From Clostridiales bacterium (GTDB lineage Bacteria; Bacillota; Clostridia; Lachnospirales; Lachnospiraceae), in NCBI GenBank assembly GCA_023663185.1, contig JAMPHY010000012.1, positions 1-64,000 on the forward strand: DNA of 64,000 nt, read 5' to 3'. The position numbers were made by a program, and so were the translations under genes. Of this stretch, positions 41,953-52,358 are shown piece after piece. The stretch's first letter is position 1. Each line of letters begins with the position of its first letter. The notes below the pieces were generated by a model that saw only the letters and a program-made list of their open reading frames with translations, was not told the origin of the DNA and searched no databases.

Positions 41953-42102
41953 CGGCATGAACTCATATGTTTCCCCTTGAGGCACGCTCTCGCTCCGTGT
42001 AAAATCGCAGCGGTACTAAGCTCGAAAGCTTGAAAAGCAGCTTTTTCACTAAGTACCGGCGTTTTACAAGGACCTCAATGGGAAACATATGAGTTCATGC
42101 CG
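41953..42102. repeat. Nested palindromic element, copy 1
   Basis: Perfect 23-bp outer arms (41953-41975 and 42080-42102), then TTGAGG/CCTCAA, TGTAAAA (41998-42004)/TTTTACA (42062-42068) and CGGTACT (42011-42017)/AGTACCG (42052-42058) around a variable tip. Blocks GGCACGCTCTCGCTCCG (41981-41997), AGCGGTACTAAG and CTAAGTACCGGCG recur in the element at 52179-52318 on the opposite strand, where the paired arms have different sequence. It fills the gap between the butyrate terminator and the XRE promoter. Confidence 0.8.
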
Positions 42103-42210
42103 TTATAGGCTGTGAATAGTGACGGGTTCATGTTACTTATATGCTTAATTAATCTTGACAATAGCTTTCATTATGAAACTCACAGTTGATTTTATGAAAA
42201 AATGCGTCTA

Positions 42211-42246
42211 TTGAATACAACCAATGCTTTTGTTATGATACAACCA
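42211..42246 (+). promoter_or_regulatory. Promoter with repeated ATACAACCA for the XRE/ABC operon
   Basis: TTGAAT (42211-42216), 17 bp, TATGAT (42234-42239). ATACAACCA occurs at 42215-42223 and 42238-42246, 23 bp apart, overlapping the -35 and -10 boxes; a site for the XRE protein is likely. Confidence 0.6.
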
Positions 42247-42278
42247 GAAAGCGAAAAAGAGAAAGGACGGTGTTTTTC

Positions 42279-43169
42279 ATGTCAAGTATATTAAGTGAAA
42301 GAATTGCTGCGCTGCGGAAAGAGCGGGGGCTGACTCAGGAGCAGTTGGGAAAATTGGTAGGCGTATCCTCGCAGGCTGTTGGTAAATGGGAAAAAGGCGG
42401 CGCGCCGGATATAGATTTGCTGCCTATTCTTTCTAAGCAGTTAGGAGTGAGTATTGATGCGCTCTTTGGCATGGAAGCGGGGGAGCAGGAGAAAGAAAGG
42501 GTAGATGCGGTAGTTGGACGCTGGCTTAGAGGCTTTCCCGATGAAGAGCGTATGAATCAGTTCTGCCATATGGTTTGGGCGGCGGTAAAATATTTTCTGC
42601 CCGCCGGATATGATTTGCCCGACTTGGGGTATTTGGAAAGCTGCCAGCCGGAAGTGTCCAAAGATTCATTAATGTATAGTAAGCTGCGGCATGGCGGCGG
42701 AATTTTGTTGGACGTACATGCGGAAGATATGAATTTTGTTACTCTTTGGCCAGAACCCAAAACAGGTTATGCCGCGTGGCTTGCTTCAAAAGAGGAGTAT
42801 CGGCAGTTGTTTTCATTATTGGCGAAGCCGGGCTGTCTTGAACTGTTAGAAGATTTATACAGTAGGAAAATCCGCTACTATGTGCCGGAGATGGTATCTA
42901 AGCAATCAGGGCTTCCCATAGGGCAGGTTCGGGAGCTGTTAGACGAGCTGACAGAATGTAATATCCTGCAGGTTTTAGAACTGGAATTGACCGAGGGAGA
43001 AGTCCGCGCCTATCAGCTTACTGAGCCTTTGGCGTTTGTGCCGTTTTTGTATATGGCGCGTGCCTTGATACAGGGCAAAATGAACTACCTTTTATTATAT
43101 GATGATGATGTGCCTATATTCAAGAAGAAAGCATGGAAGGAGAAGAAACAAAATGAGAAAGAATGTTAA
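42279..43169 (+). CDS. XRE-family regulator with unknown C-terminal domain
   Basis: A 296-residue protein. Residues 5-60 are an XRE helix-turn-helix (LSERIAALRKERGLTQEQLG KLVGVSSQAVGKWEKGG). The remaining 230 residues have no recognised domain; a winged-helix-like segment is seen near 210-255 (VPEMVSKQSGLPIGQVRELL DELTECNILQVLE). ATG 42279 follows AAAGGACGG. Its end overlaps the ABC exporter gene by 17 bp, so it probably regulates that exporter and itself. Confidence 0.82.
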   Translation: MSSILSERIAALRKERGLTQEQLGKLVGVSSQAVGKWEKGGAPDIDLLPILSKQLGVSIDALFGMEAGEQEKERVDAVVGRWLRGFPDEERMNQFCHMVWAAVKYFLPAGYDLPDLGYLESCQPEVSKDSLMYSKLRHGGGILLDVHAEDMNFVTLWPEPKTGYAAWLASKEEYRQLFSLLAKPGCLELLEDLYSRKIRYYVPEMVSKQSGLPIGQVRELLDELTECNILQVLELELTEGEVRAYQLTEPLAFVPFLYMARALIQGKMNYLLLYDDDVPIFKKKAWKEKKQNEKEC

Positions 43170-44802
43170 AAAGACTGCCACCATGATACATTATCTTAAT
43201 AAATTCAAAGCTCCCCTCATATTATCATTGCTGCCTCTCTTGATTGTCTGTGGAATGCAGGCAGCGGCGAGCTTGATTACGGCGGAAGTTTTTCAGCAGG
43301 TATTTGAGAAAGATATAGACGGGCTGGCTATCTGGATGCTTATCCTAGCTGGAGCATGGTTTTTGATTATGGTATTTAGTGCGCTAGAAGGACTGCTTCA
43401 AGGCTGGAGTATCCGTAAGCTTAACAATGCTGTACGGGCTGATATGACCGCAACTCTCTCTGTTATGGATTATAGTCACTATCATAGCGCTGATACCGGA
43501 GAATATCTTTCCCGTTTTACTAATGACGTCAATCAGATAGAAAATATGGCTTGGAAACCGTTTTTTCAGTTTGCGCAAGCTGCGGCAATGGCAGTATTCA
43601 GTGTGATTGCACTTTTGACAATCCATTGGTCGCTGCTATTAGCGGCGTTAGTAACTACTTTGGTGATGGTGTTTGTCCCGCAATTATTCAATAAAAAGAT
43701 GGAGCGGTTGGGTGATGTTTGTACTAAAGAACAGGCTGAGGCTACAGGTATATTCAAAGATTTGCTCTCCGGCTGGGACGTACTTAAATCTTTTGGGAAA
43801 AACAGAAGGTTTATCGATGGTTTTCATCATGCCAGCGAGCAGATTGAGCGGCCAAGATTCCGTCTTGCGTATACGAAGGGCTGCGTAGAGGCGGGGGTAG
43901 GCTGCGTCAACGTTCTTTGCCAGCTATTGATTACCGGTTTGGTAGGGCTGCTTGCCATCTGGGGCTATACTCAGGCAGGTTCAGTGGTGGCAGGCGGTAA
44001 TTTGTGCGGTATGTTATCAAATAGTTTGGGAAGTATGGCGGGACTATTGCTGGCATTTTCATCATCGAAGCCATATTTTGAGAAGATTACGGTCCATGCC
44101 GAAGACTTGCAAATTAGGAATGGTATAGAAATGGAAAAAATTAACAGTGAAATTTCCGTAGAAAATCTCAGTTTTGGGTATGGTGAGAAGTCCATTTTTC
44201 AAAACTTATCTCTTCAATTTAAAAAGGGCGGTAAATATGCGCTCACAGGTCCTTCCGGCTGTGGAAAGTCTACATTGCTGAAAATTTTGCTGGGCTGGAT
44301 TACAGAATATGGCGGAGAGATTTGCTTTGATGGTAAAAATGCTAAGGATTTCACCGCGGAACAGCTCCAACAGCATATGGGCTATATTGAGCAGAATGTG
44401 TTTTTATTCAATTCTACGATTAAAGATAATATTACCTTAGGGGAGACTTTTACAGATGAGAAGATAGAGAAGGCTTTACATGACAGTGCCCTTATAGGAG
44501 ACTTATCTTCAATGCCCGATGGAATCGAAACCGTTGTGGGCGAAGATGGCGCGAACCTTTCCGGCGGACAGAAGCAGCGGGTGGCGATTGCCCGCGCCCT
44601 AATCCATGACCGCTCCATTCTGCTTGTGGACGAGGGCACCAGCGCGCTTGATAAGGAGAATGCAGACATCGTGGAAAATAGCCTGCTTGCCAATCCGGAA
44701 CTGACACTGATTTTGGTAAGCCATCATCTTACTCCTGAGAGAAAGGAACAGTTTAATCATGTGTATGAGTTACAGTCAGAAGTGCTTGCGCCTGTAAATT
44801 AA
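43153..44802 (+). CDS. ABC exporter, fused permease and ATPase
   Basis: A 549-residue half-transporter, exporter type. Six membrane segments lie at about 15-300 and the ATPase at about 335-549: Walker A GPSGCGKSTLLK, signature [16 protein letters not shown], Walker B SILLVDEGTSALD, switch His in LVSHHL. It would act as a homodimer exporting a drug, lipid or peptide. ATG 43153, inside the end of the XRE gene, follows GGAGAAG; the frame from 43099 is not conserved. Its 3' end overlaps the convergent anti-sigma gene by 27 bp. Confidence 0.9.
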   Translation: MRKNVKKTATMIHYLNKFKAPLILSLLPLLIVCGMQAAASLITAEVFQQVFEKDIDGLAIWMLILAGAWFLIMVFSALEGLLQGWSIRKLNNAVRADMTATLSVMDYSHYHSADTGEYLSRFTNDVNQIENMAWKPFFQFAQAAAMAVFSVIALLTIHWSLLLAALVTTLVMVFVPQLFNKKMERLGDVCTKEQAEATGIFKDLLSGWDVLKSFGKNRRFIDGFHHASEQIERPRFRLAYTKGCVEAGVGCVNVLCQLLITGLVGLLAIWGYTQAGSVVAGGNLCGMLSNSLGSMAGLLLAFSSSKPYFEKITVHAEDLQIRNGIEMEKINSEISVENLSFGYGEKSIFQNLSLQFKKGGKYALTGPSGCGKSTLLKILLGWITEYGGEICFDGKNAKDFTAEQLQQHMGYIEQNVFLFNSTIKDNITLGETFTDEKIEKALHDSALIGDLSSMPDGIETVVGEDGANLSGGQKQRVAIARALIHDRSILLVDEGTSALDKENADIVENSLLANPELTLILVSHHLTPERKEQFNHVYELQSEVLAPVN

Positions 44803-45573
44803 CCCACTCGCCACAACCCCAACCGCGCCTATTACTATCGTTATAAACGCCACCCTTGAAAACCTTATCATGAAGCCTTCAAAGGTATCAAGATAGTATA
44901 GCCAGGAGGCGTACTGCTGGGCGAGGGAAAGTCCGGTTATATCAAGGCATAGCAGCCAGCCGCAGTTTTTGTTTTTCTTAACTATGCAGATAAAATGCCA
45001 GATTAGGAAAACAAACTGGATAATAAAAGCAATGATGAACTGCGCCTCCAGAAAATGCCCGCACTGTGATATGTCAAGTCCAAACGGAATCACTCCGGCT
45101 GAGATTTTGTGCATAAAATATAATAGCATTGACGTAATATATACGTCGGTTAGAAAAGAGACTGCGCCGGTAATGTATTCAGCCTTGCCGGGCGTCTTTT
45201 TATCCTTATAATCTATGCCGATAAGAAGCGTCATGAAGATGAATGTTATGAACAGCGCCAAATAAGCCGTGTGTGATAAAAAGACCGTATTTGTAAATGC
45301 GCAAAATCCGGTAACGGTCAAAAGTACCATGAGTAAGCCGCAAACCGCATTCTGATATTTCATTCTTCTTTTAAGTCTCTTTAAGCCGTCCAGTGATTTT
45401 TGCTCTAATTTTTCGCCGGTTAAGGCGTTCTCCTTATATAAGGCAAGCATTCGGCGGCATTCGCTGCAGCCTTCTATGTGCTCGTCTACGCAGAGCGTAG
45501 TCGCCTTAGAGCAGATTCCGTCGATATATGACGGAAGCAAATCTTTTATTATGTCACAATTAATCTTCTCCAT
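44776..45573 (-). CDS. Membrane anti-sigma factor with zinc-finger (zf-HC2) domain
   Basis: A 265-residue protein. The N-terminal anti-sigma domain has MEKINCDIIKDLLPSYIDGI and the metal motif HIEGCSECRRM (HxxxCxxC). About five to six hydrophobic segments follow (from residue 75 on). It should bind and hold the ECF sigma factor encoded just upstream, whose end overlaps its start by 14 bp. The signal is unknown. The convergent overlap with the ABC exporter is 27 bp. Confidence 0.85.
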   Translation of the reverse strand: MEKINCDIIKDLLPSYIDGICSKATTLCVDEHIEGCSECRRMLALYKENALTGEKLEQKSLDGLKRLKRRMKYQNAVCGLLMVLLTVTGFCAFTNTVFLSHTAYLALFITFIFMTLLIGIDYKDKKTPGKAEYITGAVSFLTDVYITSMLLYFMHKISAGVIPFGLDISQCGHFLEAQFIIAFIIQFVFLIWHFICIVKKNKNCGWLLCLDITGLSLAQQYASWLYYLDTFEGFMIRFSRVAFITIVIGAVGVVASGLIYRRKHF

Positions 45574-46039
45574 AATGAACCTCCTTGATTAATGTCATTT
45601 TTGCCCGGAAAAAAGTAACCCGCGCATTATTTTCGCTTATTTTAAGAATGTCTCCGATTTCTTTAAAAGAAAGTCCGCCAAGAACTCTTAACTCTACGAC
45701 TTTTCTTGTCTCTAAGGGCAGCTTATAAAGTACGCTCCATACATCTGCAAGCTCGATTTTGGCAATAGCCTGCTGTTCCGTGTTATCGCCGGATTCATAT
45801 TCAGCGTTTAGCACTTCCAGCGTCATGCGCTTATCTTTTGCCCAATGCTGATATAATAAATGTTTGGCAATCTGGCACAGCCAAGTAGACATTTTACAAC
45901 TGCCGTCATAAGAATCAATGGATTCGATAGCCTTTAAGAATGTCTCCTGCATTAAATCCTCCGACAGCAGCGCATCGCCGCATCTTTTATACAAAAAGAA
46001 AAAAACAATCTGAGAATATTCCCTGTATAGTTCGTCCAT
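45560..46039 (-). CDS. RNA polymerase ECF-type sigma factor
   Basis: A 159-residue sigma factor: MDELYREYSQIVFFFLYKRC then region 2 (SEDLMQETFLKAIESIDSYD, STWLCQIAKHLLYQHWAKDK) and region 4 (LPLETRKVVELRVLGGLSFK EIGDILKISENNARVTFFRA). The pair with a zf-HC2 membrane anti-sigma is very common in Lachnospiraceae. The upstream site TTTGTAAC-15-CCGATA suggests autoregulation. Confidence 0.92.
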   Translation of the reverse strand: MDELYREYSQIVFFFLYKRCGDALLSEDLMQETFLKAIESIDSYDGSCKMSTWLCQIAKHLLYQHWAKDKRMTLEVLNAEYESGDNTEQQAIAKIELADVWSVLYKLPLETRKVVELRVLGGLSFKEIGDILKISENNARVTFFRAKMTLIKEVHYGED

Positions 46040-46067
46040 TCGTAAGCAACCCCGTTTCTACTCTATA

Positions 46068-46096
46068 TATCGGATTTTTAGTGTATTCGTTACAAA
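46068..46096 (-). promoter_or_regulatory. Possible ECF-type promoter of the sigma/anti-sigma operon
   Basis: Read on the minus strand: TTTGTAAC (46096-46089), 15 bp, CCGATA (46073-46068). It matches the layout at 24702-24729. Confidence 0.45.
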
Positions 46097-46136
46097 TATT
46101 TTTATTTTGTGCTGGTAGTGGCTATTCAAAAAAGAT

Positions 46137-46164
46137 TGTTCTTATATATCGCATATGCTATACT
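46137..46164 (+). promoter_or_regulatory. Promoter of the Schlafen-type gene
   Basis: TTGTTC (46137-46142), 16 bp, TATACT (46159-46164). Confidence 0.6.
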
Positions 46165-46218
46165 AATATATGATAAAATGGTATTGTGTGAGCATTTTAA
46201 AAGACGGAGTGATTTTAT

Positions 46219-47574
46219 ATGGCAGAAAGCCAAAATGTAGAATGGAAACAATCGTGGCGAGATGAATATCTGAAATGGATATGCGGTTTTGCTAATGCAC
46301 AAGGTGGAAAAATATATATTGGAGCAAAAGACGATGGAACGATTGTAGGTCTTAAAGACAGCAAAAAGCTGTTAGAAGATATACCGAATAAAATTCAGAA
46401 TAAACTTGGTATTGTGGCAGATGTAAACCTATTAACAGAAGGCGGTTTGGAATATATTGAGATTGTTGTGAATCCTTGGGCATTTCCAGTAAATTGTGAT
46501 GGTGAATATCATTATCGCAGTGGTAGTACAAAACAACAGTTGAGAGGAAATGCACTAACGAATTTCCTTATGGCAAAGACAGGAATGAAATGGGATGCAG
46601 CAACCATATCTAATGTTTCGGTTTCAGATTTGGACAAAGAAAGTTTTGATATTTTTAAGCGAGAAGCGCTTCGTAGTGGACGTATGGCAAAAGAGGATTT
46701 GGACATTTCTAATGAAGAACTGTTGGAAAAATTAGAACTAATTGTAGATGGTAAATTGAAACGAGCTGGTGCATTATGCTTTTATAGAAATCCTGAAAAA
46801 GTCATCGGTGGTTGTTATGTAAAAATTGGAAAATTTGAAGGAAGTGAATTATTATATCAAGACGAAGTACATGGTTCGCTGCTCATTATTGCGGATAGGG
46901 TAATTGATTTAATTTACTTGAAATATTTAAGGGCATCAATTTCATATTACAAGGATACAAGAGTGGAGACCTATCCTTTTGCACGAGAAGCAGTGAGAGA
47001 AGCTGTGTTTAATGCGCTCATTCATTGTAACTGGGCAGATAACGTACCGATTCAGATTCGCATAGAAGAAGATGTTATGTTTGTCAGCAATTGCAGCATG
47101 CTTCCGTTTGGTTGGACTGTGGAGACTCTTTTGGAAGCCCATACATCAAAACCGTATAATCCGGATATAGCGAGAGTGTTTTACCGTGCAGGATATATTG
47201 AAAGTTGGGGGCGCGGCATACAAAAAATATGCGATGCCTGCAAAGAATTAGGAGCTGATGCACCGGAGTATATTGTTCATGGTGAAGATATTATGGTAAA
47301 GTTTAAGGCACTACAAGATGTCAAAGCGTCAGCCTTTAAAGCTTCAAAGCCTCAAAATGATGCTTTAAAAGATGCTTTGGAAGATAAATTAATGATGCTT
47401 TTGAAGGAAAATCCATATTTAACACAAAAGGAAATGGTTAAGAAATTATTTGTATCAAGGGCGACGGTTCAACGTCTTATCAAAAAATTAGATAGTGAAA
47501 AGAAATTGGAGCGTGCAGGTGGAAAACGATATGGTTATTGGGTGATTCATAATGAATATGATAGAACTAACTGA
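46219..47574 (+). CDS. Schlafen/AlbA_2-type ATP-binding putative transcriptional regulator
   Basis: A 451-residue protein. N-terminal AlbA_2 domain at about 1-115 (NVEWKQSWRDEYLKWICGFA NAQGGKIYIGAKDDGTIVGL), a middle region with an HATPase-like segment (REAVREAVFNALIHCNWADN VPIQIRI, GRGIQKICDACKELG), and a C-terminal winged helix (NPYLTQKEMVKKLFVSRATV QRLIKKLDS). Such proteins are widespread accessory genes, thought to bind DNA or RNA. Its base composition is more AT-rich than neighbours. It overlaps the next gene by 23 bp in another frame. Confidence 0.82.
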   Translation: MAESQNVEWKQSWRDEYLKWICGFANAQGGKIYIGAKDDGTIVGLKDSKKLLEDIPNKIQNKLGIVADVNLLTEGGLEYIEIVVNPWAFPVNCDGEYHYRSGSTKQQLRGNALTNFLMAKTGMKWDAATISNVSVSDLDKESFDIFKREALRSGRMAKEDLDISNEELLEKLELIVDGKLKRAGALCFYRNPEKVIGGCYVKIGKFEGSELLYQDEVHGSLLIIADRVIDLIYLKYLRASISYYKDTRVETYPFAREAVREAVFNALIHCNWADNVPIQIRIEEDVMFVSNCSMLPFGWTVETLLEAHTSKPYNPDIARVFYRAGYIESWGRGIQKICDACKELGADAPEYIVHGEDIMVKFKALQDVKASAFKASKPQNDALKDALEDKLMMLLKENPYLTQKEMVKKLFVSRATVQRLIKKLDSEKKLERAGGKRYGYWVIHNEYDRTN

Positions 47575-48226
47575 CATCACAAGTGCATATGGCAGAAAAA
47601 GAGTGCTAAACGGCGTTACACTGTGCGGCAGGCGTGGAGAGTGTATAGGCATAGTAGGATCTAACGGCTGCGGCAAATCCACGCTGCTTTCCATTATGGC
47701 GGGAGTTCTGACATCACTGTCAGGAAGTATAAGTTATTATGGCAAAGACGCCCTTAAAAACCGGAGCGTTTTTAAGAAAATGACAGGTTATGTACCGCAG
47801 GAAAATCCGCTTATGCCTGAACTCAGCGTATACGATAATCTGCGCTTGTGGTATACGGATAAGGCGGAGCTTAAAAAAGAATTAGAGCAGGGTTTTTTAC
47901 AGATATTAGGGATTCCTGAATTTATAAATACGCCTGTTTCTAAGCTCTCCGGCGGCATGAAAAAAAGAGTCAGTATAGGCATAGCGCTATCAGGTATGCC
48001 GCCCGTTTTGATATTAGACGAGCCGAGCGCAGCGCTGGATTTAGTATGTAAGGAAGATATCAGGCGGTATTTAAAGCTTTATTTGGAAAGAAAAGGAACT
48101 GTTGTGATTACGACGCATGAAGAAAGGGAGCTGGAACTATGCGACAGCCTGTATGTAATGAAGGACGGGCGGCTTAATGCGGTTGATAAGTCGCTGCGAG
48201 GCGAAGCGTTGACAGCGATGTTTTAA
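47552..48226 (+). CDS. ABC transporter ATP-binding protein
   Basis: A 224-residue stand-alone ATPase: Walker A GSNGCGKSTLL near residue 36, Q loop GYVPQENPLMP, signature LSGGMKKRVSIGIALS, Walker B VLILDEPSAALD, switch His in VITTHEERE. It should serve the two ABC-2 type permeases at 49676 and 50926. The start lies inside the preceding gene; ATG 47558 is an alternative. A 118-bp gap with a palindrome separates it from the next gene. Confidence 0.92.
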   Translation: MNMIELTDITSAYGRKRVLNGVTLCGRRGECIGIVGSNGCGKSTLLSIMAGVLTSLSGSISYYGKDALKNRSVFKKMTGYVPQENPLMPELSVYDNLRLWYTDKAELKKELEQGFLQILGIPEFINTPVSKLSGGMKKRVSIGIALSGMPPVLILDEPSAALDLVCKEDIRRYLKLYLERKGTVVITTHEERELELCDSLYVMKDGRLNAVDKSLRGEALTAMF

Positions 48227-48234
48227 ATATTGGT

Positions 48235-48319
48235 AAGTTCAGGCAAAGTGAATAAAAACGTAGCTCCATGCCTGAAAAGCGGTAAGTCGCTCCTTATTTT
48301 ATTCACTTTGCCTAAACTT
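48235..48319. repeat. Long palindrome inside the ABC-2 gene cluster
   Basis: Arms of 23 bp (48235-48257 and 48297-48319) are complementary at 22 positions, with a 39-nt loop containing AGCGGTAAG, close to the AGCGGTACTAAG block of the elements at 41953 and 52179. It lies directly after the ATPase gene and may shape the 3' end of that mRNA segment. Confidence 0.65.
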
Positions 48320-48343
48320 TAAATTATTTAAGGAGGTATTAAA

Positions 48344-49663
48344 ATGGAACAGTATGGAGAAATCAGGATTCCTGAGATTGAGGAAAAACATAACAGAAAT
48401 AAAAAGACTGTGATTGCGGCTATAATCGGCTGCATTGTTTCGGCGATAGTGTATATTACCGCGGGAGCATTAATTGTAAAGGCATATAATGTATATAATT
48501 CGGACGAAGCGGTGCTTTACAGGAGCTTGAGCAATCTGGTAAAAGAAATAAGCGAGCAGCAAAAGCTTCTGGTAGAGGCGGGTGTGGCTTCAGGTGCAGG
48601 CGGAGCAGGGGCGTCAAAAACGGAAATATCGCTTAACTTAAGCGGCGACGAGCTTCCGTTTACCATAGGCATAGACGAGACCAACCTAAGAGATGGGAGC
48701 GCACATAAACTGCAGTCTGAGATGGAACTCAGCATTATGAACTATACATTTATGGAATGCGATATATATGGTGATGATGAGCGGATTGTTGTTTCGCTGC
48801 CTGATATATTTGAGCAAAATCTGGAATTTTCACCGAAAAATGTAGACAAGCAGTATAATAAGTCGTTGTTTGCAGAAATGTATGGTACTATTGATGAAAC
48901 GGGACTTTCTTTTGATATGTTTGCGGAGCAGGAAAGTGACTTAATAAGTGTTGAGAAGTTTAAAGAACTATGGGAGGCTGAGAAACCTGAGGAGTCTATC
49001 CAAATCAGCAAGGTCAAAAGCACTGATAAACAGAGTGGATACAGTACATACCGTATTGTCATTCCTAAAGAGTGGATTATGTTTATGGAATCTGAAATTA
49101 GAGATTCCGTTATGGAAAAAAACGGTGTTACCGACTTTTATATTACGAATGACATTGCCCTGCTTATTGATATTGAGAAAAATAAGCGGATTACCATGAT
49201 TTCGTTGGAGGAACCAATGCAGTATTCTGTTGAGTATGAGGGTTATGTCGGAATTGCCAAACTTGACGGAAGTGTCAGTTTTTTAGGAGAAAATAGAAGT
49301 GTTGACGATATGGAACTAAATATTGAAACACAGATGCTGCTTAGTATGTTAGACAGCGATGGAGAAAGCTATGTATGGGAAGACATTCTTCCGGAAGAAG
49401 AACAAGTGAATATAGGTATTACACTAAAGTATGACTATAATGAAAATGACGGAAGTGTCACATATGATTTAGATAATATATTGATATCTATGGAAGAGCT
49501 TGGCGACATCAAGCTGACAGGAGAAATCAATGTAGAACCGCTTGACGAGAAAATTACGCAGCCCAAAGGCAAGACTATAAAGATATTTGAAATAACCGAA
49601 GAAGAATACGAGGATTTGGAAGAGCAGCTTATTGACAGCTTGCTTGGGATTATGGGTTATTAG
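48344..49663 (+). CDS. Membrane-anchored protein of unknown function, ABC-cluster partner
   Basis: A 439-residue protein with a short cytoplasmic N-terminus (about 20 residues), one membrane span at about 24-46 (TVIAAIIGCIVSAIVYITAG) and a large extracellular part. The latter starts with a helical segment and a Gly/Ala linker (VASGAGGAGASKTEI), then beta-rich sequence with many acidic residues. I do not recognise a family. It lies between the ATPase and the permease genes behind AAGGAGG, so it probably works with the exporter, for example as an accessory or substrate-handling protein. Confidence 0.7.
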   Translation: MEQYGEIRIPEIEEKHNRNKKTVIAAIIGCIVSAIVYITAGALIVKAYNVYNSDEAVLYRSLSNLVKEISEQQKLLVEAGVASGAGGAGASKTEISLNLSGDELPFTIGIDETNLRDGSAHKLQSEMELSIMNYTFMECDIYGDDERIVVSLPDIFEQNLEFSPKNVDKQYNKSLFAEMYGTIDETGLSFDMFAEQESDLISVEKFKELWEAEKPEESIQISKVKSTDKQSGYSTYRIVIPKEWIMFMESEIRDSVMEKNGVTDFYITNDIALLIDIEKNKRITMISLEEPMQYSVEYEGYVGIAKLDGSVSFLGENRSVDDMELNIETQMLLSMLDSDGESYVWEDILPEEEQVNIGITLKYDYNENDGSVTYDLDNILISMEELGDIKLTGEINVEPLDEKITQPKGKTIKIFEITEEEYEDLEEQLIDSLLGIMGY

Positions 49664-49675
49664 ATTGAAAGGGGC

Positions 49676-50929
49676 ATGGATATTGTAGTGAAAAGCACTT
49701 TCATCTTATGGAAATTGGAACTTAAGCGCATGATAAAACTTATGCCGTCCATGCTGTTTGAAGCGTGTATACTGCTGCTTATCCTAGCGGCAGTTGCTTT
49801 TGGTGCGGGTAAGCTTCTTTATCAGGACTCGCCTTTAATCCGTATAAACATTGCGGTTATTGAAGAAGAGGAAAATCCGCTTACGGATATGGCAGTTAAT
49901 TATATACAGGGTATGGAAAGCATTGCCGAGCATTGCAGCTTTAATATCGTAACGAAAGAGGAAGGCTTTAAGCTGCTTAATGAGGGAAATGCCGCTGCTG
50001 TCTTATATCTGCCCGCGGGTATGATAGAGGGGATTATGAACGGCAATAATGTGCCGGTACAGGTCTTTTTCCCTGAAAATGCAGGGATAGAGTCAGCGCT
50101 GCTCAAAGAGCTGACAGACGCAGGTCTTAAAATGCTGCGGGTGGCGCAGGCGGAAATATATGGTATTTATGATACTGCGAAAGAGTACGACACGCTGGAC
50201 ATGCTTTCTGTAATGGAAACCGATATAGATATGTATAATCTTGCTTTTGCGCTTGACAGATTGGCACTTTATGAGATACAGCAAGTATCTGCTACGGGGA
50301 GTCTTAACTTTGGACAGTATATGGCAGCATCGGGCGCAGTATTTTTTCTTATGCTTATGGGAATGACGTGTTATCCGATGATGCAGCCTTATCCTGCTGC
50401 GCTGCGCGCCCAGCTTAAGCGGAGTGAAATAGGTTTAGGAAAACAGTGCTTCGGCAAATGGTTGTGTGGACTTTGCAGCATTGCGATAAGCGCTGCGTTT
50501 TTTCTGCTGATTGTCAAATCTGTATTGAAAGCGTTTAACTACTCTGAATGGCTGCCGACAATGAGCTTAGGGCAGATAGGAACCGCAGTTGTTATTCTTA
50601 TATGTATTTCGACCTTTATATTTATGATATTTCAGATGGCGGCAAACGGGAGCGCGGCAATACTGGCGCTATTCTTTATTTCCATGATTATGCAATATTT
50701 TTCGGGCGGTATTCTGCCGTCGGCGTTCTTACCTGCGGCGGTCTGGAATGTCGGGAAGCTTCTGCCCACTAAATATCTGATTGAAGCTGCCGGAAGTATG
50801 TATACGGGCGCAGGCAGTTTTAGGGTTATAGGAATTTTACTTGGCTTTACGGCAGCATTCGGCATTGTGGCATATATCGCGGCGCATGGTACGGTGGCAT
50901 ATGCAGCGCGGGGAAGGAGCAGGGTATGA
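49676..50929 (+). CDS. ABC-2 type transporter permease
   Basis: A 417-residue membrane protein of the ABC-2 (YhgE/NodJ-like) layout: one span near the N-terminus (about 22-42), a large extracellular domain of about 150 residues (INIAVIEEEENPLTDMAVNY), then five spans from about residue 215 to the C-terminus. AAAGGGG lies right before ATG 49676, too close for it; GTG 49688 four codons on has a 13-nt spacing, so the start is uncertain. The next gene overlaps by 4 bp. Confidence 0.82.
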   Translation: MDIVVKSTFILWKLELKRMIKLMPSMLFEACILLLILAAVAFGAGKLLYQDSPLIRINIAVIEEEENPLTDMAVNYIQGMESIAEHCSFNIVTKEEGFKLLNEGNAAAVLYLPAGMIEGIMNGNNVPVQVFFPENAGIESALLKELTDAGLKMLRVAQAEIYGIYDTAKEYDTLDMLSVMETDIDMYNLAFALDRLALYEIQQVSATGSLNFGQYMAASGAVFFLMLMGMTCYPMMQPYPAALRAQLKRSEIGLGKQCFGKWLCGLCSIAISAAFFLLIVKSVLKAFNYSEWLPTMSLGQIGTAVVILICISTFIFMIFQMAANGSAAILALFFISMIMQYFSGGILPSAFLPAAVWNVGKLLPTKYLIEAAGSMYTGAGSFRVIGILLGFTAAFGIVAYIAAHGTVAYAARGRSRV

Positions 50930-52173
50930 GAAAATATGCGGTCTGCTTTTATCTGATGTTTAAACGCATATTGAAGACGCCCGCTTTTGTATTTATGCTG
51001 TTTGTCATGCTTGTTATTGCGGCAGCAGTTTCAATGACGGAACAGGGTGAAAAAGAAGGAACCGTCATTGGCATTGTGATAGAGCAGGCTGAAATAGCAG
51101 AGGTATCCGCGGTTTATGAAGAATGGAAACAGGATTTTACATCTCAGCTCAATTCTCAGGAAGGTATATTACAGTTCCGGTTTTATGAGAATAAAGACAG
51201 ACTTATTCGGGCTGTGGAGCGTAACGAGGCGGATTGCGGCTTCATAGTTCCTTACGATTTAAAAGATATGCTGACGTCGGAAACATGGCGCAGCGCAGTC
51301 ACGGTATATATTTCCTCTTCCTCAGCTCTAACGCAGATGGCTAAGGAGAAGATATCGGCGGCAGTTTTCACCTTGTACTCGGAAGAGAGTTATGTAAACT
51401 ATATTAAAAATTCGCAAGCCTTCGCGCCAGCGCAGACCGGCATGGACGATAATGTGAATAATGACAAGGATAATAATATAGAAGAGATAGTTGATTTTGC
51501 CAAAAACGCCTACGAGTCACATCTTATAGATGGAAGTACGTTTGATTTTGTATATAATGAAGAGAGTAATGCAAGTGAGATGGCGGAAGACGATAGTGGT
51601 AGTAATAAAGCTGATATATCAGTGAATGATAATGACAACAGTGTCATAAATAGCGCAGATGAGCCAAAATATGCAGGTATACAAAATAATGTAGACATAC
51701 AAAATATCCAGAACCCGACAGAGACTACTACATTCAGGCTTAGAGGCGTACTTGCCGTCTGCATATTCATAAGCGGCATGTGCGGACTTCTGACAGACTG
51801 GAAAGACAGGCACGAGAAACGCTTCTTACGAATTGCGCCGCCGTGGACAATCACGCTTGCTAATGTCTGGATACCGACGATTTATACGTCCGCCGTATCA
51901 TATGCAGTTTTACTTTTAACCGGACAAATATCCGGTGGCGGAAATTTGTTAAAGGAATTACTCAGACTTTTAATTTACCAATTCCTGATTGTGATATATT
52001 GTAGTATAATCAGATTAGCATTAAAAAAACAAGAGACAATAGCGGCGGCAATACCGATTTTAACACTCGCCTGCATAATATGCTGTCCCGTCTGGATAAG
52101 ACTTGCAACATACGTGCCGGTATTTAGAGTACTGGAGAAACTTTTCCCCGCCACTTACTACCTTATTCCATAG
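50926..52173 (+). CDS. ABC-2 type transporter permease, second subunit
   Basis: A 415-residue paralogue-like partner of the preceding permease, with the same layout: span at about 14-33, a long extracellular domain at 40-270 that includes an Asn/Asp-rich low-complexity stretch (DDNVNNDKDNNIEEIVDF and NDNDNSVIN), then spans from about 275 to the end. It overlaps the previous gene by 4 bp (ATGA). The two permeases plus the ATPase at 47552 make an exporter of unknown substrate. Confidence 0.8.
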   Translation: MRKYAVCFYLMFKRILKTPAFVFMLFVMLVIAAAVSMTEQGEKEGTVIGIVIEQAEIAEVSAVYEEWKQDFTSQLNSQEGILQFRFYENKDRLIRAVERNEADCGFIVPYDLKDMLTSETWRSAVTVYISSSSALTQMAKEKISAAVFTLYSEESYVNYIKNSQAFAPAQTGMDDNVNNDKDNNIEEIVDFAKNAYESHLIDGSTFDFVYNEESNASEMAEDDSGSNKADISVNDNDNSVINSADEPKYAGIQNNVDIQNIQNPTETTTFRLRGVLAVCIFISGMCGLLTDWKDRHEKRFLRIAPPWTITLANVWIPTIYTSAVSYAVLLLTGQISGGGNLLKELLRLLIYQFLIVIYCSIIRLALKKQETIAAAIPILTLACIICCPVWIRLATYVPVFRVLEKLFPATYYLIP

Positions 52174-52178
52174 CGTAA

Positions 52179-52318
52179 GTTGTACAATATATATAAAACA
52201 ACGCAGGGTACTATGCCGCCGTCGGTACTTAGGCGCTGTACTTTAGCGCCTTATGTACCGCTACTGGCGGCAACGTAGCGGAAGCGTGCCCTGCATTGTT
52301 TTATATATATTGTACAAC
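52179..52318. repeat. Nested palindromic element, copy 2 (inverted)
   Basis: Outer arms of 30 bp (52179-52208 and 52289-52318) pair at 29 positions. Inside, GCCGCC (52215-52220)/GGCGGC (52266-52271), CGGTAC (52223-52228)/GTACCG (52255-52260) and AGGCGC/GCGCCT follow. On the minus strand the blocks GGCACGCTTCCGCTACG, AGCGGTACATAAG and CTAAGTACCGACG align with the element at 41953-42102. It separates the ABC-2 cluster from mtnA. Confidence 0.82.
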
Positions 52319-52358
52319 GTAACTATTAAAGAATCTTATAAGCAAGAGGAGAACATAC

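What the first reader, a model, noticed from the sequence alone, without database searches (positions are those of the whole stretch)
41953..52318. Two nested palindromes share conserved blocks while their paired arms co-vary
The elements at 41953-42102 and 52179-52318 lie in opposite orientation. Aligned on the same strand, both read outer arm, GGCACGCTnnCGCTnCG, a 7-bp arm, AGCGGTACnTAAG (allowing one base), a variable tip, CTAAGTACCGnCG, the matching 7-bp arm, outer arm. The 7-bp arms are TGTAAAA/TTTTACA in one and TGCCGCC/GGCGGCA in the other, at the same place. The outer arms (23 and 30 bp) are unrelated in sequence but each pairs with itself. Conserved unpaired blocks plus compensatory arms point to a selected fold (RNA or cruciform) or to a small mobile palindrome that rewrites its arms. 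I know of no described family like this.
Basis: partly seen in the sequence, partly recalled or inferred. Interest (0 to 1): 0.8.

Follow-up and report, generated by a model that had tools for sequence, protein, structure and literature searches.

The report
Gut-bacterial palindromes that rewrite themselves
The two palindromes are copies of an abundant DNA repeat of the gut-bacterial family Lachnospiraceae, for which I found no published description; it often sits just after genes, folds into a long hairpin with a conserved core, comes and goes between related genomes, and keeps its two arms matching while their sequence changes.

Summary
Both elements belong to one dispersed repeat family: 87 copies in this genome, matches in 58 of 60 genomes of the genus, own included, and in 98 of 250 sampled genomes of the family, but in none of about 328 sampled genomes outside the family. 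Arms differ between copies yet pair, with heavy covariation. Comparison with a related genome (G007, most flanks 87-94% identical) shows how: at orthologous sites both arms changed together (55 two-sided, 45 one-sided changes), the tip class differs in 9 of 18 and the core lies inverted between matching arms in 2 of 18. Copies are gained and lost, including a clean insertion at a stop codon with 42/42 identical arms. In this genome 44 of 78 intergenic copies start within 50 nt after a sense stop codon (14.5% expected). No Y1/RAYT-type transposase was found in this genome. Best reading: a non-autonomous MITE/REP-like palindromic repeat whose arm pairing is kept largely by DNA-level template switching and exchange between copies. 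Mobilising enzyme and function are unknown.

The parts
41953..42102 (+).
41953..41982 (+). E1 outer arm, 5' side (pairs with 42073-42102)
41981..41997 (+). E1 conserved block GGCACGCTCTCGCTCCG (mostly unpaired, two-pair mini-hairpin at the three-way junction)
41998..42004 (+). E1 variable inner arm TGTAAAA (pairs with 42062-42068)
42009..42020 (+). E1 conserved block AGCGGTACTAAG
42021..42048 (+). E1 variable tip (long type)
42049..42061 (+). E1 conserved block CTAAGTACCGGCG
42062..42068 (+). E1 variable inner arm TTTTACA
42073..42102 (+). E1 outer arm, 3' side
42110..42123 (+). motif CTGTGAATAGTGAC next to E1; a similar motif (up to 3 substitutions) lies to the right of 60 of 108 subfamily A copies of this genome and G007, and it is present in G007 where E1 is absent
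52176..52321 (-).
52274..52290 (-). E2 conserved block GGCACGCTTCCGCTACG
52266..52272 (-). E2 variable inner arm TGCCGCC (pairs with 52214-52220)
52223..52262 (-). E2 conserved blocks AGCGGTACATAAG and CTAAGTACCG around the variable tip stem
52214..52220 (-). E2 variable inner arm GGCGGCA

Best explanation
A Lachnospiraceae-specific family of small, dispersed palindromic repeats (about 150 bp, more where the arms are longer), REP/MITE-like. SHOWN: many copies, presence/absence differences between related genomes, one clean insertion, tail-to-tail order of close copies, a strong preference for the first 50 nt after stop codons in this genome, a core with conserved mostly unpaired blocks, and concerted change of both arms, tip exchange and core inversion at fixed sites. 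INFERRED: the element spreads as a non-autonomous unit recognised by its core hairpin (DNA cruciform or single strand) by a host or mobile enzyme not identified here. Once in place, its arms are kept complementary mainly by DNA processes: replication template switching between arms (which copies one arm onto the other and can flip what lies between) and exchange of core and tip with other copies. In sense position after a gene the transcript would end in or run through a very stable hairpin, so an effect on mRNA 3' ends is likely but untested.
For: 87 copies in this genome; 58 of 60 genus genomes, own included; 98 of 250 family genomes; in the class sample 9 of 13 same-family genomes and none of about 328 others; exact core pattern in 0 viral contigs. 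Covariation: 107 two-sided cells, score 0.349 against 0.05-0.10 slid (27 own copies); family-wide 1010 cells, 0.670 against at most 0.097 slid. Orthologous sites, 16 colinear loci, 877 pairs: 55 both sides changed Watson-Crick to Watson-Crick, 1 other two-sided, 45 one-sided (G-U 6, A-C 19, other 20). Core inverted between matching arms at L275/L327 and L265/L363; tip class differs in 9 of 18 shared loci. E1 absent at its locus in G007 and in 0 of 19 other genus loci examined is any copy found near that gene. Clean insertion in G007 at own L279:814-816 with 42/42 identical arms, at the stop codon. 44 of 78 intergenic own copies start within 50 nt after a sense stop codon, random 14.5%. Close pairs 27 of 29 tail-to-tail. 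Arm homogenisation plus spacer inversion is the published outcome of template switching (PMC8604942, abstract and passages; PMC8794818, passages).
Against: No mobilising protein was found: no recurrent transposase gene noticed beside the copies and no Y1 transposase in this genome. Only one clean insertion junction was seen (TTA on both sides, with four extra bases), so ends and target duplication are not settled. Family-wide, G-U exceeds A-C in outer arms (53:30 and 36:16) and more so in inner helices (101:21, 64:15; in G007 30:6, though its outer arms are 13:27); 82 of the 101 come from two pairs. This fits some selection on the + strand as RNA or single-stranded DNA. Tip exchange is not explained by template switching alone. 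Both genomes compared are fragmented assemblies (54 and about 180 contigs), in which repeats of this length can be misassembled. The orthologous sites were mostly reached from G007 copies, which favours shared sites.
Confidence: 0.7

Rival explanations
1. A selected RNA structure: a 3'-UTR hairpin bound by a protein or processed in mRNA, whose arms covary by ordinary compensatory mutation under selection for pairing.
For: Conserved blocks, AG bulge, TAA/TAA internal loop and AAARNAC-type apical loop across genera (by eye); sense position after stop codons, 44 of 78; same-strand excess 120 against 77, p 0.0027 over four sets that share some sites; G-U over A-C family-wide.
Against: Recent changes are two-sided with few G-U intermediates (55 two-sided; one-sided G-U 6, A-C 19); core inversions would break an RNA read in one orientation; E1's site is not conserved (0 of 19 other genus loci); one of the four sets shows no same-strand excess (18 against 24).
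Confidence: 0.15
2. A REPIN/BIME-type element mobilised by a RAYT (Y1 tyrosine transposase acting on a single-stranded hairpin).
For: High copy number, mostly extragenic position, hairpin with conserved bulged bases, inverted close pairs 27 of 29, as in REPINs and BIMEs.
Against: No PF01797 match at E <= 0.001 in this genome (94.8% complete, 87 copies) nor in G059 (100% complete, 51 copies); of 98 element-bearing genomes 47 have none, association not significant (51 of 98 against 92 of 152, p 0.19). Much longer than REPs.
Confidence: 0.05
3. A conserved core unit that inserts into the apex of pre-existing palindromes, so that the outer arms are target sequence.
For: Core-less palindromes with the same kind of outer arms and a single central CATATG exist (L375/L384, L382/L395, L397, L052:840); with the core present CATATG flanks it on both sides; in Coprococcus catus two copies have unrelated outer arms (L135, L162; by eye).
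Against: Some core-less copies keep pieces of the inner arm (L385, L377; by eye), as deletions would leave; the clean insertion difference comprises core and 42-bp arms together; in stretches not fetched for this motif only one core-less palindrome was seen (L052).
Confidence: 0.1

Closest known systems
ERIC/IRU (RU-1) of enterobacteria
   Same: Small (127 bp) interspersed repeat, transcripts fold into long stem-loops, co-transcribed with neighbours and tied to mRNA stability; how such repeats move is not experimentally known (PMC2229807, passages)
   Different: Different bacteria; ERIC terminal inverted repeat is given as 7 bp; no in-situ arm rewriting or core inversion is mentioned in the passages read
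RUP of pneumococcus and Correia/NEMIS of Neisseria (bacterial MITEs)
   Same: Small repeats (RUP 107 bp, 108 copies; Correia 107 and 155 bp) with terminal inverted repeats and long stem-loop transcripts (passages)
   Different: RUP terminal repeats resemble those of an IS (IS630-Spn1), its proposed mobiliser; here the arms vary between copies, the core is the constant part and no parent IS was found
REP / BIME / REPIN with RAYT
   Same: High-copy extragenic palindromes, inverted close pairs, bulged hairpins (partly recalled)
   Different: REPs are 20-40 bp (abstract of PMC3733652, listing), many with GTAG tags in the table passages of PMC2817692; here about 150 bp, and no Y1 transposase in the host
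Template-switch (quasipalindrome) mutation
   Same: Arm homogenisation and spacer inversion in inverted repeats (PMC8604942; PMC8794818)
   Different: The cases in the passages read are short inverted repeats in yeast genes and RNA-gene hairpins; here many changes on a dispersed repeat family with arms mostly 27-31 nt around about 90 nt

Membership tests
REP/REPIN-RAYT | Y1 (HUH) tyrosine transposase of RAYT type in the host genome | tested here: not met
   PF01797 search at E <= 0.001: G000 none, G059 none
REP/REPIN-RAYT | palindromic unit of 20-40 bp | tested here: not met
   arms alone 25-55 nt in all but the interrupted copies, element about 150 bp
REP/REPIN-RAYT | units in inverted close pairs | tested here: met
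   27 of 29 close pairs are (+,-), 0 are (-,+); some pairs are the same site in two genomes, e.g. L029 and L347
Bacterial MITE | small, dispersed, non-autonomous, mobile | tested here: met
   87 copies; presence/absence against G007; non-autonomy inferred from size and lack of a recurrent neighbour gene
Bacterial MITE | target-site duplication on insertion | tested here: inconclusive
   one clean junction: TTA on both sides plus four extra bases; L015/L324 shows AAATATT/AAATATC by eye
Bacterial MITE | terminal inverted repeats shared with an autonomous IS | tested here: inconclusive
   the one terminal motif tried (ACAGTTCAGCCCACAGG) gave 24 places: full elements, core-less palindromes, remnants and lone motifs by eye, no open-frame analysis made; other ends not tried
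Rfam structured RNA | match to a described family at gathering score | tested here: not met
   0 matches in the 64 kb window; only sub-threshold matches at E1
Structured RNA in general | covariation with G-U intermediates favoured over A-C on the transcribed strand | tested here: inconclusive
   6 against 19 in recent changes, 27 against 31 in own outer arms (my sums), but 53 against 30 family-wide
Template-switch homogenised inverted repeat | two-sided arm changes and inversion of the spacer at orthologous sites | tested here: met
   55 two-sided against 45 one-sided; 2 of 18 shared loci inverted
Integron attC site | integrase and folded attC features | not tested
   considered from memory only

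The most novel reading that the evidence does not exclude
The core is the recognised part of a dedicated recombination system: an enzyme acts on the folded core (cruciform or single strand), moves the unit to new sites after genes or beside existing copies in tail-to-tail order, flips the core, and exchanges cores and tips among copies, so that arms are rewritten at each event. That would be a mobile element defined by a structure with free arm sequence rather than by fixed terminal repeats.
Probability: 0.2. Interest if true: 0.85.

Novelty: new variant of a known kind. Interest (0 to 1): 0.62.

Why it matters
It is an abundant repeat of a major gut and rumen bacterial family for which I found no description (term and string searches in the held library only). 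It offers dozens of natural sites per genome at which palindrome arm rewriting can be measured, and it warns that strong covariation, usually read as proof of a selected RNA fold, can arise largely at the DNA level. Its place after stop codons (44 of 78 copies here) means it may shape mRNA ends of many genes, and inversions and exchanges of this kind could disturb short-read assembly and strain comparison.

Tried and rejected
Rfam: nothing at gathering score. Neighbour genes: clustering of open frames in loci L064 to L236 showed, among the 25 largest clusters printed, no transposase that I could recognise from its sequence; the largest cluster, in 20 loci, reads like an ABC ATPase (my reading, no search). 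RAYT/IS200-type mobilisation: rejected as a requirement. Phage carriage: exact core pattern in 0 viral contigs (other pattern forms not tried). A parent IS with the ends ACAGTTCAGCCCACAGG: 24 places, none noticed to bracket a gene, not tested further. Whether the CTGTGAATAGTAAC flank is target or part of the element: left open; it is present at the E1 empty site in G007 but missing with the element at another empty site; 60 of 108 subfamily A copies have it on the right, 27 of 105 on the left. A possible TTTCGC end motif in other genera was weak (18 of 210 right, 5 of 210 left). A palindrome scan of own stretches was too strict and returned 4 items. Rows dropped: one search used 86 distinct rows of 89 (one weak hit and two duplicates left out); one search used 16 of 19 loci (two inverted, one empty); searches dropped duplicates and copies near locus ends. 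The random placement used own stretches with their elements left in. E2 could not be compared with G007: its flanks are not in the fetched stretches. Paper searches gave no description of this family in the rows listed; PMC12306157 and PMC3733652 were searched for terms only.
Full report
OBSERVATION. Each folds far better than shuffles (z -11.6 and -12.3) into one long hairpin with a small side hairpin in the block GGCACGCTnnCGCT, a variable inner stem, a two-base AG bulge, a stem CGGTAC/GTACCG, a TAA/TAA-type internal loop and a variable tip. No Rfam family reaches its gathering score in the window.

THE FAMILY. A pattern search found three exact cores of one tip form (E2 and two more) and 41 exact GGCACGCTNNCGCTNCG blocks in the genome, with many near matches. 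A covariance model from 27 copies finds 87 copies in this 3.83 Mb genome. E1 belongs to the large subfamily A (outer arm GGCATGAACTCATATG...), E2 to subfamily B (TTGTACAATATATAC...); L021 combines a B body with a short A-type tip. Matches at E <= 0.001 occur in 58 of 60 genomes of the genus, own included, and 98 of 250 of the family (stricter filters and a limit of 16 scored places per genome, so a lower bound). In a class-wide sample of 341 with a broader model R2, 9 genomes match, all of the same family; 13 same-family genomes are listed, and I take the 312 unlisted rows, which come after the same-order rows, to be outside the family, which gives 0 of 328. G007 has contig lengths (266488, 105079, 87333) equal to those of Butyrivibrio sp. 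NALB_7823_4 records, so the window is most likely from a close Butyrivibrio relative; this is inference.

CONSTANT AND VARIABLE PARTS. Across genera the blocks CACGCTnnCGCT, (C)GTA/GCA-GCGGTAC(n)TAAG and CTAAGTACCG(A/G)CG stay (the last two partly by choice of the search pattern), and an apical loop of AAARNAC type recurs, while outer, inner and tip stems differ (by eye). On 27 own copies 95.9% of cells pair, with 107 two-sided changes; on 113 distinct family-wide rows 91.3% pair, with 1010 two-sided changes and a covariation score of 0.670 against at most 0.097 for slid partners. That alignment was fitted to the model, which leans towards the structure.

HOW THE ARMS CHANGE. The same sites were compared in G007. 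Of 87 distinct own matches given to the comparison (one a weak hit), 19 had both flanks in the G007 stretches I had fetched, mostly chosen around G007 copies, which favours shared sites. Eighteen have an element in both genomes; E1 is absent in G007. [quoted passage not shown] By my arithmetic the per-side change rate is about 9%, so about 7 two-sided changes would be expected if sides were independent. One-sided changes are G-U 6, A-C 19 and other 20; as the fold was made on our own sequence, A-C mismatches there cannot be counted, so the test leans towards G-U and still shows no preference for the pair that RNA would tolerate. The tip class differs in 9 of 18 shared loci (my reading), yet in six colinear loci with the tip class unchanged (L044, L032, L030, L028, L241, L062) there are still 16 two-sided against 8 one-sided changes. 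In two of 18 (L275/L327, L265/L363) the core is inverted between matching arms. Arm homogenisation together with spacer inversion is the reported outcome of polymerase template switching between inverted repeats (PMC8604942, abstract and passages), and template switching has been proposed to create and maintain RNA stems in single mutation events (PMC8794818, passages). Tip exchange needs something else, most simply exchange with other copies.

RESULTS AGAINST A PURELY DNA-LEVEL VIEW. In all own copies G-U is 79 and A-C 43, but 26 of the 79 lie in tip-side columns 90-96, largely from a third tip type, and the outer arm is 27 against 31 (my sums). Family-wide outer arms give 53 against 30 and 36 against 16, inner helices 101 against 21 and 64 against 15; in G007 the outer arm is 13 against 27 and the inner helices 30 against 6. 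Of the 101, 82 are two pairs (70 at columns 48/210 and 12 at 74/188). So over long times the + strand seems preferred as a folded strand, RNA or single-stranded DNA.

MOBILITY. At one site our genome is empty and G007 carries the whole element with 42 of 42 identical outer arm bases, placed at the stop codon (TAA in ours, TAG in G007, after the same ten codons); TTA stands on both sides, with four extra bases at one. G007 has a further extra copy beside L015 and a B copy beside L044; at L045 our genome has only what reads as a remnant of the B copy of G007. Another own copy (L277:3810) is missing in G007 with its surroundings. Near the gene that precedes E1, none of 19 other genus loci, up to about 1.5 kb to either side of the match, holds a copy (contigs cut some of these short). 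Halves and an internal deletion exist (L272, L273, L274), and core-less palindromes, some of which look like deletion products. Among copies less than 450 bp apart 27 of 29 pairs are (+,-), none (-,+) (a few are one site in two genomes, and a few of the second matches are weak or partial). Three pairs (L324, L316, L329) are polymorphic between the two genomes and join copies of different subfamilies or arm types, so pairs can arise by separate insertions.

POSITION. Of 83 own copies examined, 5 lie inside predicted open frames; of 78 intergenic ones 44 begin within 50 nt after the stop of a sense gene, against 14.5% for random intergenic placement in 129 kb of own sequence with its elements left in (p about 1e-17), and 21 end within 50 nt of the stop of an antisense gene (14.5% expected, p 0.0036) (genes are longest open frames, not curated). 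Same-strand (+E+) against opposite-strand (-E-) contexts: 36:16, 31:17, 35:20 and 18:24 in four sets, together 120:77, p 0.0027; the own and G007 sets share sites, so this p is too small. E1 follows an ETF-alpha gene on the same strand; E2 lies antisense between two + strand genes.

WHO MOVES IT. No recurrent transposase was noticed beside copies. The Y1 transposase family PF01797 has no match in this genome nor in G059, which has 51 copies and 100% completeness, and is not associated with the element over 250 genomes (51 of 98 against 92 of 152, p 0.19). The exact core pattern is absent from the viral collection.

VERDICT. A real, abundant, family-wide repeat of the ERIC/MITE/REP kind, for which I found no description in the held library (term and string searches only). 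What sets it apart is that the arms are free to change and do so together, that core and tip are exchanged and flipped in place, and that neighbouring copies stand tail to tail. Shown: distribution, anatomy, covariation, concerted change, presence/absence, position. Inferred: template switching and exchange between copies as the cause. Unknown: the enzyme that moves it and any function. Main caveat: both compared genomes are fragmented assemblies, so the swaps and flips need long reads.

Noticed in passing
L260:1437-1538, L261:1477-1609, L269:1420-1552: Three copies have the right arm cut by another short hairpin repeat, TGCTATGCGCCAGTGGCGCATG, at nearly the same point of the arm.
   Followed up: no
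L003:1418-1593 and L316: B copies with an extra hairpin (TTTACGAAGTAAA) inside the inner arm.
   Followed up: no
L018, L026, L030, L366: A third tip type carries an additional hairpin (..ACCACTT..GTGGTCT) in place of the CTAAGTACCG side.
   Followed up: partly
L062:1453-1864: Our genome has a tandem-looking repeat tract beside this copy that is shorter in G007.
   Followed up: no
G007 C11, C37, C121, C124, C131 ends: Several contigs of G007 end in or near an element, as expected if the repeat breaks assembly.
   Followed up: no
L124, L151: Exact core matches in contigs titled Selenomonadaceae and Gastranaerophilales MAGs; binning errors or transfer not examined.
   Followed up: no
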